DNA of 20,591 nt from DATKZS01 sp035527835 [NCBI: bacterium]. GTDB lineage: Bacteria > RBG-13-61-14. Location: the NCBI GenBank assembly GCA_035527835.1, contig DATKZS010000118.1, forward strand, positions 1 through 20,591, read 5' to 3'. How positions within the stretch are numbered: the first letter of the stretch is position 1; the number at the start of each line of letters is the position of its first letter. A model generated the notes under the pieces. The model had not been told where the DNA came from and ran no database searches. It worked only from the letters and a program-made list of their open reading frames with translations. Positions 1 through 17,879 of this stretch are shown here, piece after piece. Both the position numbers and the translations under genes were made by a program.

Positions 1-1
1 G

Positions 2-100
2 CTGATCACCCCGATTGCGATGGAGAAGGAGCTTCGGTTCGCGATCCGGGAGGGCGGCCGGACGGTTGGCGCCGGGGTGACGGTGGAGGTAATTGAGTAA
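2..100 (+). CDS. tuf: Elongation factor Tu, C-terminal end (partial)
   Basis: The first 33 codons of the window, read in frame from base 2, end at a TAA and translate to the invariant end of EF-Tu ([19 protein letters not shown], then [13 protein letters not shown]). This is the last strand of the C-terminal beta-barrel domain, which contacts aminoacyl-tRNA. The rest of the gene lies upstream of the window. EF-Tu delivers aminoacyl-tRNA to the ribosome as a GTP complex. Its position just before rpsJ is the usual junction of the str and S10 gene blocks. No terminator with a clear U-tract is visible before rpsJ, so read-through is plausible but not shown. Confidence 0.96.
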
Positions 101-110
101 GAAGAGAATT

Positions 111-184
111 AACAAGGATATTTAGGATAAACAGGATAAGAATTGTTGTTATTTCTTATCCTTGGAATCCTGGTCATCCTTGTT
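111..184. repeat. Imperfect inverted repeat with phased GGAT units
   Basis: Two 32-base arms (111-142 and 153-184) are imperfect inverted copies around a 10-base loop. Each arm carries three GGAT (or ATCC) tetramers exactly 9 bases apart: GGAT at 116, 125 and 134, ATCC at 158, 167 and 176. The RNA could fold into a long interrupted hairpin in the tuf/rpsJ spacer. It is AT-rich compared with its neighbours, which suggests an inserted interspersed repeat rather than native leader sequence. A role in attenuation is possible but is inference only. Confidence 0.8.
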
Positions 185-280: not shown

Positions 281-589
281 ATGGCGACGCAAAGGATCCG
301 GATTAGGCTTAAGGCTTATGACCACAATCTTTTGGACCAGTCGGTCCGGGAGATCGTGGACACGGCCAAGAGGACGGGCGCGAAGGTTGCCGGGCCGATA
401 CCCCTGCCCACCGACATCAACCGTTTTTGCGTGCTGCGTTCTCCGCACGTTGACAAGAAGAGCCGGGAGCAGTTCGAGGTCCGGACCCACAAGCGTCTGA
501 TAGACATTCTGGAGCCGACGCAGGCCACGGTTGACGCGCTGGGCAAGCTGGATTTGTCGGCGGGCATAGATATTGAGATCAAACTCTAG
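281..589 (+). CDS. rpsJ: Ribosomal protein S10
   Basis: The 102-aa product is the usual length for S10, a protein of the 30S head that also serves as NusE in Nus-factor antitermination. The body of the family is visible: [14 protein letters not shown] near the N-terminus, then the loop with [20 protein letters not shown] and the strand [14 protein letters not shown]. The ATG at 281 has a purine-rich site (AGGGAG) 5-6 bases upstream. The gene opens the S10 block. The next gene is rplD after only 16 bases, where rplC would normally stand. The protein itself is complete and ends in the normal DIEIKL-type tail. Confidence 0.98.
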
Positions 590-605
590 GAACGGGCGGT
601 AAGTC

Positions 606-1259
606 ATGGAAGGCGAAAAGACAACCGGTTCGGGCCCGATCACGTTCGACGTGATGGACGCGCACAAGAACCCGGCGGGCAAGATTGAGCTTGACCCGGC
701 GGTGTTCGACGCCCCGGTCAAGACGCACCTTTTGCACGAGGTGGTGGTGTACCAGGAGGCCAAGCACCGGCGGGGCACGGCCTGCACCAAGACGCGGGCG
801 GAGGTGGCGGGGGCCAACAAGAAGCTTTACCGGCAGAAGGGCACGGGCCGGGCGCGGGCGGGCGAGCTCCGGTCGCCGGTGCGGCGCGGCGGCGGGGTGG
901 TCTTCGGTCCGAAGCCGCGCGACTTCGGGTTCAAGGTCGGCAAGAAGGTGAAGAAGGCGGCGCTTCGGTCGGCGCTCTCGGCCAAGCTCAAGGAAGAGAA
1001 GCTGATCGTGGTGGACGAGCTCAAGCTTACGAAGGTGAAGACGAAGCTTCTGCTGGATTGGCTCGCGGGCGTTGGCGCGGGCCGGAGCGCGCTGGTGGTG
1101 ATCCCGGCGGCGGACCAGACGGTGGAGCTCTCGGCCCGGAACCTGAGGAAGGTGAAGGTGCTCCGGGCGCAGGGCATCAACGTGCGGGACATCCTGCTGC
1201 ACGACAAGCTGGTGCTGACCCGGGAGGCGGCGGTGAAGATACAGGAGGCGCTGGCATGA
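606..1259 (+). CDS. rplD: Ribosomal protein L4
   Basis: This 217-aa protein is L4 of the 50S subunit, whose extended loop lines the peptide exit tunnel; in some bacteria L4 also represses its own operon. The loop is clear at about residues 56-97 (RRGTACTKTRAEVAG, then YRQKGTGRARAGELRSP), followed by VVFGPKPRDFGFKV and KKAALRSALSAKL. The C-terminus (NVRDILLHDKLVLTREAV) is typical. The first ten residues (MEGEKTTGSG) are a slightly unusual lead. The ribosome-binding site is weak (GGGCGGT), in contrast to the strong sites elsewhere in the cluster. That may relate to the missing rplC directly upstream. The stop overlaps the rplW start by 4 bases. Confidence 0.97.
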   Translation: MEGEKTTGSGPITFDVMDAHKNPAGKIELDPAVFDAPVKTHLLHEVVVYQEAKHRRGTACTKTRAEVAGANKKLYRQKGTGRARAGELRSPVRRGGGVVFGPKPRDFGFKVGKKVKKAALRSALSAKLKEEKLIVVDELKLTKVKTKLLLDWLAGVGAGRSALVVIPAADQTVELSARNLRKVKVLRAQGINVRDILLHDKLVLTREAAVKIQEALA

Positions 1260-14907: not shown

Positions 14908-15474
14908 ATGCGACACGCGCTCAAGTCCAGACGTTTCGGCCGGCCCACCGGCCACCGCAACGCATTTTTTCGGAACCTGATCACCGAGCTCATCAGGCAT
15001 GAGAAGATCCAGACCACCCACGCCCGGGCCAAGGAGCTCGCTTCGAAGGTCGCCGGCGTCATAACCCTGGCCAAGCGCGGCGACCTCCACGCCCGCCGGC
15101 AGGCCGCCGCCGTGATCACCGACAAAAAAATCGTGACCAAGCTCTTCGACGACGTGGGTCCGCGCTTCAAGGACAAGGCCGGCGGTTACACCCGCATCAC
15201 CCGCACCGGCGTGCGCCGCGGCGACGCCGCGCCCATGGCCCTGATCGAGCTCACCGTGGCCAGCACCGCCGGCGCTAAAACAGAGGGCAAGAAAACCGAA
15301 AAGCCGGCCAAAAAGGAAAAGGCCGCGAAAAAGGAAAAGCCCGCGAAAAAGGAAAAGCCCGCGAAAAAAGAAAAGCCGGCCAAGAAGGACAAGCCCGCCA
15401 AAAAGCAAGCGAAGGCGGAAAAGGGCAAGGAAAAAGGCAAGGAAAAAGGCAAGGAAAAAAACAAAGCCAAATAA
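14908..15474 (+). CDS. rplQ: Ribosomal protein L17 with long lysine-rich tail
   Basis: Residues 1-118 are a normal L17 ([65 protein letters not shown]), a 50S protein near the exit tunnel. Residues 119-188 form a low-complexity tail: six PAKKEK-like hexapeptides at 133-168 and three GKEK units at 173-184. This makes the protein 188 aa, against about 115-130 for a core L17. The tail is likely disordered and strongly basic and may bind rRNA or another polyanion; this is inference. The ATG at 14908 follows AAGGGGAG. It is the last gene of the cluster. Confidence 0.96.
15304..15459 (+). repeat. In-frame tandem repeats in the rplQ tail
   Basis: Six 18-base units (15304-15411) encode PAKKEK-type hexapeptides and three 12-base units (15424-15459) encode GKEK. 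Copies differ mainly at third positions (for example CCG/CCC, AAA/AAG), and all lengths are multiples of three, so copy-number change would not break the frame. Such tracts are prone to slippage. Confidence 0.9.
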
Positions 15475-15579: not shown

Positions 15580-15817
15580 AAGAATTTTTACACGGATGGG
15601 ACGGATTGAAACGGATTCCACGGATCGGAAAGAACGGACATCCGTGCGATCCGTCCTCAATCCGTTGGCATGAATCAACCCGACCCTTTCCCGGTCATCG
15701 GAATTTATTCTCTTCCTTAAGCCTACGGATGATAACGGATGGAACGGATCATTGTCCCGAAAACATTGTTCCGATCCGTGTCATCCATCCCATCCGTTTT
15801 CATCCGTGTAAATTCTT
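15580..15817. repeat. Large inverted repeat with phased CGGAT units
   Basis: The 385-base spacer between the convergent genes rplQ and the 15860-17119 gene is mostly this element. The outer arms (15580-15630 and 15769-15817) are inverted copies, matching in ACACGGATG and CACGGATCGGAA. GGAT or ATCC tetramers recur every 9-11 bases: GGAT at 15594, 15603, 15613 and 15622; ATCC at 15640, 15649 and 15660; GGAT at 15727, 15737 and 15746; ATCC at 15774, 15783, 15792 and 15802. Each half can also fold on itself. No open reading frame of interest lies within. The remaining spacer bases (15525-15579, 15818-15859) show nothing recognisable. Confidence 0.8.
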
Positions 15818-15859: not shown

Positions 15860-17119
15860 TTATTTTATGAGCAGCGGGCCGGCCAGCGCGTGAGAGCCGC
15901 GCGGCGACCCCGGCTCGGTCACCGCGATGAAGAACCGCGACGCGCCGCCGGGAGCAGCGCCACGGAACGACCGGTCCAACCGGAAATCATCCGTGCTCCA
16001 GGACGCGGCCTGGCCGAGCTCCCCGCCGCTGTCCCGGAGCAGGCTGACCTCCTCCCGCGGCCCGCGGCCCGCGACCATGATCCGTAAAGCGCCGTTCGCG
16101 GCCGCCGCCGAGAAATTGCCCTTCCAGTCAATAAAAGTCCGCCCTCCCCAGGACGCGTAAGCATCGCCCCGCCCGAGCGCCTTCCAGATGCTCGGAGCTT
16201 CATCCCCCTCGCTCCATACCCCGATCCACCCGTCGCGGTCCGCGACCGCGGCCATGACCGTGCCCCGGCCCCGCGCCGCGGGCCATGAATTCTTGAATCC
16301 TTCCATGAAACCACCCGCCGGCGAGGCGTCATCCGGCTGGCCCGTCACCACCAGCAGATGAGGCGGGAGAGCAAGGCCTTTTCCGACGGGCGGGACCGCG
16401 AGCAAAAGGCCGCCCTCCTGCTCCGCGAAAATTTCCAGAATCTTTTCAGGCTTCGCCGCCGCTTTCAAATTCTCGACCAGCGCCGTTTGCGCGGCCGGGT
16501 CCAGGCCCGGATTGATGATGATGTGCCACGTCTCGGCCCCGGCCTGTTTGCTGAGACCCGTGATCAAGAGGGGGACGCCGAGGGCCGGCTTGCCGGGCCC
16601 AGCGGCCGGCGGCCGTTCGCCGTGCTCCGCGATGCAGAAATCCAGGCCGGGCGCGGCGCAGTCGCCGAGCTTGCCCCAGAACAGGCGCGGGCCGCGGTAG
16701 TTGTCCGCCACCGGGAACACCGGGTCCGACCACGACTGGATCACTCCGGTCAGCGAGTAGGCCTCGATCCGCTGCAAGGCCGGCAGCTCGAACTTCAGCG
16801 GCTGGAAGATCACCCCGCGGTCAGCGGCAACGAACTTGACGTGGAACGGCCGAATCCAGGGACCGTCGGTCCACAGCCAGGCCTCGCCCCGGAAGTCCCG
16901 GTCAATGTCCCACGTCTCGGTCCGCGCCACCACTGCGACGGTAGTGTACACATCCGTCCGCGGCGTTGACGGCGCCATGACCTCGACCCGGCCCAGCGAC
17001 GGCTCGCGGCCGGAGATCGGAGCGGCCGCGCACCAGAGCGCCAGGACCAACGGCCATGCCGCTCCCGAAAGTGAAGAGCCTGCGCCTTTGTGTTTTTTGC
17101 TCCAGCGCATGGCGTTCAT
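15860..17119 (-). CDS. Putative exported protein, degenerate DUF3604/PHP-like
   Basis: The ATG at 17119 follows the pgeF stop by one base and has GAGGCAGG upstream; it gives 419 aa. The N-terminus (RWSKKHKG, then the hydrophobic run AAWPLVLALWCAAAPISG) looks like a signal peptide. From memory of the family, three segments resemble DUF3604/PHP-type proteins: RLFWGKLGD (145-153; usually YWGDLHxH), LDFCIAEHGE (159-168; usually LDFxxxTDH), and GWIGVWSEGDEAPSIWKALG plus RGDAYASWGGR (about 297-327). The metal-binding histidines and aspartates are mostly replaced, so a hydrolase activity is doubtful. It is the last gene of a four-gene unit with rluD and pgeF. It could be an unrelated beta-rich periplasmic protein; the family link is tentative. 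Confidence 0.6.
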   Translation of the reverse strand: MNAMRWSKKHKGAGSSLSGAAWPLVLALWCAAAPISGREPSLGRVEVMAPSTPRTDVYTTVAVVARTETWDIDRDFRGEAWLWTDGPWIRPFHVKFVAADRGVIFQPLKFELPALQRIEAYSLTGVIQSWSDPVFPVADNYRGPRLFWGKLGDCAAPGLDFCIAEHGERPPAAGPGKPALGVPLLITGLSKQAGAETWHIIINPGLDPAAQTALVENLKAAAKPEKILEIFAEQEGGLLLAVPPVGKGLALPPHLLVVTGQPDDASPAGGFMEGFKNSWPAARGRGTVMAAVADRDGWIGVWSEGDEAPSIWKALGRGDAYASWGGRTFIDWKGNFSAAAANGALRIMVAGRGPREEVSLLRDSGGELGQAASWSTDDFRLDRSFRGAAPGGASRFFIAVTEPGSPRGSHALAGPLLIK

Positions 17120-17120
17120 T

Positions 17121-17879
17121 TTATCCTGCCTCGGCAACGATTGCGATGAAGTGATAGAGCGACGGCACGCCCTTGCCCTCGCGGCGATACGAGAAGAAGA
17201 GCTCGGCGTGGCAGTAGGTGCAGACGCGGAGCTCCTGGATGTTCCCGGGCTTCAGCCCGGCCTCTTCCAGGATGATGCGGTTGGCCGAAGAGAGGTCGAG
17301 GCGGGCATGCCCCGGCCCGTCGGGCTCGAGCACGTCCGCGGCCCGTCCGGCCAGGGCCTTGCCGATGGCCTGGATCACCGGCGCGTCAACCTGGTAGTGG
17401 CAGGGCAGGATGGATGGACCGATGCCGGCGATGAGGTCCGTCGCCCGCGAGCCGTACTCCCGGCGCAGGATGCTCACGGCCTCTCCGGCGGCCCTGAGCG
17501 CGGTGCCCTTCCAGCCGGTATGCACTGCCGCCGCCACTCTCCGGGCCGGGTCGCAGATCAGGACCGGCACGCAGTCCGCCGTGCGCACGGCCGCGGCCAC
17601 GCCCGGCGCGCTCACGATGATGATGTCGGCGTGGAGCCCGCGGACGGCGGCGACGTCCCGGATTTTTCTCACGTGGACCGCGCTCAAGCCGTGGACCTGG
17701 CGCACGGTGGCGATATGGCGGAGTTGCGGAAAGGACGCCTTGATGCGGTCATGCGCCACCGCATGGCCCCGGCCAAGGTCACGGGTGCCGAAGCCGTGCG
17801 CGACGCCCGGGAGCGCCAGCGCCGGGAGCGTGAAAAAAGGCGCGCCTTTTATGATGGACCCAGGCATGGAGGGTCTCAT
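17121..17879 (-). CDS. pgeF: Peptidoglycan editing factor PgeF (multicopper polyphenol oxidase / DUF152 family)
   Basis: The 252-aa protein has the family motifs in order: TVRQVHG (H63), RTADCVPVL (C103), AAVHTGWKGT (H120), GIGPSI (153-158), and a C-terminal CTYCHAELFFSYRREG. H63, C103 and H120 are the metal ligands of the family. E. coli YfiH was described as an enzyme that removes mis-incorporated residues from peptidoglycan precursors; other members were called laccases or purine nucleoside phosphorylases, so the exact role here is open. The start overlaps the rluD stop as ATGA. The rluD-pgeF pairing is widespread in bacteria, which supports the call. Confidence 0.93.
   Translation of the reverse strand: MRPSMPGSIIKGAPFFTLPALALPGVAHGFGTRDLGRGHAVAHDRIKASFPQLRHIATVRQVHGLSAVHVRKIRDVAAVRGLHADIIIVSAPGVAAAVRTADCVPVLICDPARRVAAAVHTGWKGTALRAAGEAVSILRREYGSRATDLIAGIGPSILPCHYQVDAPVIQAIGKALAGRAADVLEPDGPGHARLDLSSANRIILEEAGLKPGNIQELRVCTYCHAELFFSYRREGKGVPSLYHFIAIVAEAG

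What the first reader, a model, noticed from the sequence alone, without database searches (positions are those of the whole stretch)
589..606. rplC (L3) is missing from its canonical position between rpsJ and rplD
The rpsJ stop and the rplD start are 16 bases apart, and both flanking genes are complete. All the other expected genes from rpsJ to rplQ are present in standard order. L3 is a core, normally essential 50S protein that nucleates assembly, and its gene is almost always here. Either rplC has moved elsewhere in the genome, or the lineage has an unusual ribosome, or the assembly lost a segment exactly between two genes. The weak ribosome-binding site of rplD would fit a recent loss of the upstream coupled gene.
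Basis: partly seen in the sequence, partly recalled or inferred. Interest (0 to 1): 0.68.

Follow-up and report, generated by a model that had tools for sequence, protein, structure and literature searches.

The report
Ribosomal L3 gene moved from operon
The gene for ribosomal protein L3 really is missing from its usual slot in this bacterium's ribosomal gene cluster; in the closest relatives found the gene sits elsewhere in the genome, so this is most likely an old gene move, of a kind that has happened several times in bacteria, and not a bacterium without L3.

Summary
Confirmed: rpsJ (281-589) and rplD (606-1259) are complete, 16 bp apart, and no L3 is encoded in the window (best six-frame hit E 0.69; control 2e-92). 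No genome is held for the window, so its own L3 was not seen. Its nearest relatives found, G114 and G125 (support 95.6/99 and 100/100), show the same junction and carry one bona fide L3 gene on another contig. Assembly error, recent loss or an L3-less ribosome are therefore unlikely; relocation is best supported. Operon proteins reject one clade for such genomes (p 7.6e-37): several moves. Unexpected: 31 of 32 relocated L3 share an "HE" loop motif that 30 of 104 operonic ones have (operonic rows enriched for it; kinship-corrected pairs too few for significance). Whether native genes moved or were displaced laterally is open.

The parts
1..100 (+). 3' end of tuf (EF-Tu), upstream neighbour
   Evidence: Read by eye from the sequence, as before rpsJ in L080. 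No family search was run on it.
281..589 (+). rpsJ (uS10), complete
   Evidence: NF001861/TIGR01049 above cut-off; PF00338
590..605 (+). 16-bp rpsJ-rplD spacer where rplC is expected
   Evidence: no L3 anywhere in the window
606..1259 (+). rplD (uL4), complete, follows rpsJ directly
   Evidence: TIGR03953; PF00573
1256..15474 (+). Rest of the S10-spc-alpha cluster in standard order: rplW, rplB, rpsS, rplV, rpsC, rplP, rpmC, rpsQ, rplN, rplX, rplE, rpsN, rpsH, rplF, rplR, rpsE, rpmD, rplO, secY, adk, map, infA, rpmJ, rpsM, rpsK, rpsD, rpoA, rplQ
   Evidence: ORFs. Family matches (rplW, rplB, rpsS, rplV, rpsC, rplP, rpsQ; the stretch tried for rpmC gave no match; adk, map, rplQ); the other names are read from the sequence

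Best explanation
rplC has left the S10 operon in the lineage this window comes from, and L3 is made from a separate gene elsewhere in the genome. The operon closed up cleanly, so rpsJ and rplD are now neighbours with a 16-bp spacer and are presumably still co-transcribed with the rest of the cluster; L3 is presumably supplied from its own transcription unit and joins the 50S subunit normally. Shown: the junction; its presence in both readable sister genomes; a full-length L3 gene on another contig in both. Inferred: that the window's own genome has such a gene, and that it is expressed in balance. The move is old (most simply, at least as old as the common ancestor of the window, G114 and G125) and is one of several independent moves of rplC in bacteria.
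For: Window + G114 95.6/99, + G125 100/100 in a tree of 50 rows and 15 ribosomal proteins, of which 8 are visible in G114; identity 66.7% over 1198 columns (G114) and 63.9% over 2157 (G125). G114 and G125: no L3 between rpsJ and rplD (69 and 20 bp), one L3 each, on other contigs (G114:C9, G125:C36), both above the TIGR03625 cut-off of 142.9 bits (270.6 and 235.5). Their L3 proteins are compatible with common descent (quick test, p-AU 0.839). Where both genes lie on one long contig, binning is excluded as the cause: G067, G068, G074, G102 and G438. Cross-phylum sample 17 of 105, each with the junction read as DNA. Of 15 query genes, the 6-15 visible keep standard order in 30 of 30 relocated genomes. 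Ten of 10 relocated L3 proteins tested are bona fide L3. In 995 bacterial genomes 44 of 56 r-proteins were strictly ubiquitous and L3 is in neither list of exceptions (PMC3353972, passages).
Against: The window's own genome is not held, so its L3 gene was not seen. G114 and G125 share no gene next to L3 that was found: four G125 neighbours tested (DUF362-ferredoxin, ndk and two more) do not match the G114 stretch, so no location can be predicted, and a further rearrangement or a separate move must be assumed. In the quick L3 tree G114 and G125 fell apart, as they do in the fuller one. The third genome of that group, G124, has no detectable L4 or L3. G525 has the tight junction (55 bp) and no L3 found at all; incompleteness is likely but untested.
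Confidence: 0.93

Rival explanations
1. Assembly artefact: a segment with rplC was dropped exactly between rpsJ and rplD (for example a collapsed or chimeric join).
For: The window is a single contig, and no reads or genome are available.
Against: Both readable sister genomes have the same junction and carry L3 on another contig. The deletion would have to fall cleanly between a stop and a start codon.
Confidence: 0.03
2. The lineage has no L3 and an altered 50S subunit.
For: No L3 in the window; G525 has the junction and no L3 found.
Against: Both sisters with a readable junction encode a full-length L3; L3 is not among the non-ubiquitous proteins of 995 bacterial genomes (PMC3353972, passages); of six genomes with L4 but no L3 found, five have L4 at or near a contig end.
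Confidence: 0.02
3. Lateral displacement: a free-standing rplC of another lineage (the HE-loop type) was acquired, and the native operon copy was then lost; the same kind of gene did this repeatedly across phyla. (A variant of the relocation reading, not of the two above.)
For: 25 of 26 relocated L3 rows have the HE loop against 12 of 57 hand-picked operonic rows; with four close kin that were left out there, 29 of 30. Label changes: 7 on the L3 tree against 13 on an L4 tree of the same genomes. L3 data do not reject one clade for all relocated rows (p-AU 0.22), while the operon proteins do (p 7.6e-37). End branches of relocated L3 are hardly longer (medians 0.352 v 0.342), which speaks against long-branch attraction.
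Against: Several relocated groups have operon-encoded HE-type relatives (G105/G122 beside L119, L127, L197, L200; the G032 group in a weakly held set with L097, L180 and others), which fits a native HE-type gene moving. The six further HE-type relocated genomes form one clade with G032 (support 100), so they add no new event. One clade is not rejected by L4 either (p-AU 0.097), so single genes have little power. The L3 tree includes the loop columns themselves. Independent pairs on supported branches: sign test median p 0.125 and 0.25, not significant. G344 is relocated and not HE type. The extra residue is not unique: two solved L3 chains align to the G114 loop there without a gap, but lack the E.
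Confidence: 0.17

Closest known systems
Canonical bacterial S10-spc-alpha cluster
   Same: The other genes from rpsJ to rplQ are in standard order in the window (names partly by reading)
   Different: rplC absent between rpsJ and rplD
Stand-alone rplC of the window's sister genomes G114 (L226:12862-13683) and G125 (L225:8764-9564)
   Same: Same rpsJ-rplD junction; L3 lies among non-ribosomal genes
   Different: Window's own copy unseen; no shared neighbour found between the two sisters
Other single genes out of place around this operon: rpsJ not seen upstream in cyanobacterial loci, rplB not found near rplD in many verrucomicrobial loci
   Same: One gene is away while its neighbours stay (no rpsJ match in 9 of 75 loci, no rplB match in 25 of 77)
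   Different: A different gene; seen in passing as missing tblastn matches and not checked further
Operon rearrangements catalogued in Gammaproteobacteria and Bacilli (PMC8046335, passages seen)
   Same: Deletion, insertion and rearrangement within this cluster are an established kind of event
   Different: The word rplC does not occur in its main text

Membership tests
Canonical S10 operon | rplC between rpsJ and rplD | tested here: not met
   16-bp spacer, no L3 in the window
Canonical S10 operon | rpsJ, rplD, rplW, rplB, rpsS, rplV, rpsC, rplP in order on one strand | tested here: met
Lineages with relocated rplC | Tight rpsJ-rplD junction without rplC | tested here: met
   Window; sisters G114, G125
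Lineages with relocated rplC | A full-length L3 gene elsewhere in the same genome | not testable with these tools
   No genome held for the window; met in both readable sisters
Lineages with relocated rplC | Window branches with genomes that show the relocation | tested here: met
   95.6/99 with G114, 100/100 with G114 + G125
Bacterial uL3 (TIGR03625) | Relocated genes of other lineages pass the curated cut-off | tested here: met
   10 of 10 tested, out of 36 relocated L3 genes typed
HE-loop L3 lineage spread laterally | HE motif in the window's own L3 | not testable with these tools
   Own L3 unseen; both sisters have it
HE-loop L3 lineage spread laterally | Relocated L3 proteins form one clade against the organisms' tree | tested here: inconclusive
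   Not rejected by L3 (p-AU 0.22) but not rejected by L4 either (0.097); rejected by the operon proteins

The most novel reading that the evidence does not exclude
rplC is a preferred escapee of the S10 operon: a distinct L3 subtype with an HE loop has repeatedly become a free-standing gene, at least in part by lateral displacement of the operon copy, in the window's phylum-level group and in many others, so a core 50S protein thought to be inherited with its operon has a partly separate history.
Probability: 0.17. Interest if true: 0.62.

Novelty: new member of a known kind. Interest (0 to 1): 0.36.

Why it matters
It settles a tempting but probably wrong reading (a bacterium without L3, or a broken assembly) and shows that absence of rplC from its slot is a poor sign of either: 17 of 105 comparable genomes in a cross-phylum sample lack the adjacency. 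It also means that pipelines which take L3 from the contig of the S10 operon will miss it in these lineages, and that L3 may not share its history with the operon in marker-gene trees. If the link between relocation and the HE-loop subtype holds in a denser sample, it makes testable whether a core 50S protein gene is being replaced laterally.

Tried and rejected
Own-genome search: no genome held. Naming the group: of the loci used, only the 80 carry names; the nearest relatives are unnamed handles, so the phylum is not named here. The one genome-contig scan with L4 found no close relative (best segments 51% identical or less); wider L4 searches reached 58%, and only the concatenated proteins showed G114 and G125 to be nearest.

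Recent loss (weak ribosome-binding site) rejected because the junction is shared with distant sisters. A single relocation in one clade of organisms rejected. One conserved new location rejected: lineages differ in neighbours (part of its output cut); among G001 and G067-G076 a tatA-like/ArsR-like neighbourhood recurs by eye (TatA by Pfam only in G068), and G125 and G114 share none found. One L3 clade for all relocated genes was first favoured by a quick search, but a fuller search reversed the order (free tree better by 32); it is neither shown nor rejected. L3 data reject the exact organism topology, but so do L4 data, so this was not used as evidence for transfer. No RNA family other than a tRNA reached its Rfam gathering score in the window.

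Counts and their limits: and 30/87 list only part of their matches, ranked by E-value; 105 of 336 and 130 of 247 genomes could be compared, some places being taken. Of the 336, three belong to G114's own phylum. One search holds groups with more than one member (G067/G070; G114/G125). The 10 of 130 are two groups (G002/G008/G009 and G032 with six kin). One search's many-phyla set contains the seeds G001, G114 and G125. Rows dropped: loci with under 9 or 6 of 15 proteins; relocated G070, G071, G072 and G076 were left out as close kin, and operonic rows were hand-picked. operonic rows include top matches to an HE-type query and are enriched for that type; less biased operonic backgrounds: 9 HE of 32 in many phyla, 8 of 35 in the large phylum, 2 of 12 loci, 0 of 76 loci. 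G192 (L250) looks relocated and HE type but its L4 was not listed, so it is not counted. On checking, I lowered the lateral-displacement odds from 0.20 to 0.17 because the six new genomes of the second set are one clade with G032.

Literature: searches gave, in their listings and the passages opened, no paper describing relocation of rplC; most subscription papers are not held. Kunisawa 2011 (gene order in Deferribacteres) and Coenye and Vandamme 2005 were seen only as references and may contain it.

Full report
OBSERVATION. rpsJ (281-589) and rplD (606-1259) are complete and separated by 16 bp. A profile from 199 L3 sequences finds no L3 in the six frames of the window (best E 0.69), against 2.3e-92 in a control locus. 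Of 80 related loci, 66 show both genes; in 65 the interval is 621-1019 bp, and the exception, L080, has 30 bp.

WHERE L3 IS. No genome is held for the window. In the genome of L080 (G001) L3 lies on another contig, among non-ribosomal genes. Comparing places of L3 and L4, L3 is not beside L4 in 4 of 57 genomes around G002 (59 searched; counted by eye from the tables) and in 17 of 59 around G001 (61 searched; by eye), several on single long contigs, which excludes binning errors there. In a sample that lies almost wholly outside G114's phylum (336 genomes, of which 105 could be compared) it is 17 of 105, and for all 17 the DNA shows rpsJ followed by rplD at -9 to 179 bp between match ends. In the large phylum of G032 (247 genomes, 130 comparable) it is 10 of 130, in two groups; 9 of the 10 junctions were read, and G002's contig starts inside rplD. 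In 30 of 30 relocated genomes the 6 to 15 query genes that could be seen keep their order. In L4-centred loci from many phyla, a set that contains the seeds G001, G114 and G125, no match was found for rplC in 6 of 37, rpsJ in 0 of 37, rplW and rplB in 0 of 38.

KINSHIP OF THE WINDOW. With ribosomal proteins (15 used, 8 visible in G114) the window joins G114 (95.6/99) and then G125 (100/100), two of the three held genomes of one phylum-level group. Both show the tight junction and one L3 elsewhere, bona fide by TIGR03625. G124, the third, shows neither L4 nor L3. The distances (0.64 and 0.79 substitutions per site) make the loss old. L3 of G114 and G125 fell apart in two free L3 trees, but holding them together is not rejected (p-AU 0.839, quick test). 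Their neighbourhoods differ: G125 L3 lies beside ndk and a DUF362-ferredoxin gene; G114 L3 lies near a contig end with a GGDEF response regulator and a dapA-like gene nearby.

HOW IT WORKS. Most likely the operon lost rplC and L3 comes from a single gene elsewhere. Co-transcription of rpsJ and rplD and balanced expression of L3 are inferences. uL3 contributes to forming 23S rRNA domain VI during assembly (PMC9935924, passages), so a true absence would be remarkable, and nothing here calls for it.

HOW OFTEN AND HOW. The operon proteins reject one clade for all relocated genomes (lnL lower by 287.5, p 7.6e-37); parsimony gives 10 changes, so there were several moves, though the deep branches are uncertain. 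An unexpected pattern: the L3 loop carries either an HE motif, roughly HG[TVS]HExxR (type B), or other sequences such as HGSxFHRAPG (type A). Type B: 25 of 26 relocated against 12 of 57 operonic rows, 29 of 30 with the four kin left out there, and 31 of 32 against 30 of 104 in the extended set, whose operonic rows are enriched for B. Less biased operonic backgrounds are 9 of 32, 8 of 35, 2 of 12 and 0 of 76. The exception is G344. The six genomes added in the second set are one clade with G032 and so are not a new test. The L3 tree needs 7 label changes against 13 for L4, but it includes the loop columns. Against a lateral-displacement reading: several relocated groups have operonic type-B relatives, single-gene tests cannot separate the cases (p-AU 0.22 for L3, 0.097 for L4), and independent pairs are too few (median p 0.125 and 0.25). 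The plain Fisher value (3.6e-11) ignores kinship and is not evidence by itself.

VERDICT. Real, but most likely not an absent ribosomal protein: an old relocation, one of a recurrent kind. The window adds a member to a phylum-level group with the trait. The recurrence and the link with a loop subtype are the parts worth following; I found no paper on rplC relocation in the listings and opened passages of searches of the open library.

Noticed in passing
window 111-184: Imperfect palindrome (32-nt arms, 75% complementary, 10 nt between) in the tuf-rpsJ gap; the 101-285 stretch folds better than most shuffles (z -2.27, 6 of 200 as good). Looks like a dispersed repeat or leader hairpin; no Rfam family reached its gathering score there.
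   Followed up: partly
window 15587-15812: Cluster of ACGGAT-type direct and inverted repeats just downstream of rplQ (44-nt arms, 75% complementary).
   Followed up: partly
window 15860-17137 (-): 425-aa ORF downstream of the cluster with no Pfam match at E 0.001.
   Followed up: no
window 14908-15474: rplQ has a long lysine-rich repetitive C-terminal tail after the L17 domain (domain match ends at residue 115 of 188).
   Followed up: no
L138:2467-3408, L160:5576-6421 and relatives: Relocated L3 of G001, G068 and several kin carries a long acidic C-terminal tail.
   Followed up: no
L087:363-1265 and L231:1886-2473: In two relocated lineages far apart in the tree (G002, G352) L3 lies next to an FtsJ-family methyltransferase gene.
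   Followed up: partly
L242: G478 has rplC behind rpsJ but about 820 bp of other DNA between rplC and rplD (rpsJ-rplD interval 1468 bp).
   Followed up: no
L243: G525 has rpsJ and rplD 55 bp apart and no L3 found in its genome; incomplete genome or a true absence.
   Followed up: partly
loci, L027-L074 in part and L040-L077 in part: No rplB match near rplD in 25 of 77 loci, mostly verrucomicrobial by title; no rpsJ match in 9 of 75, all cyanobacterial by title.
   Followed up: no
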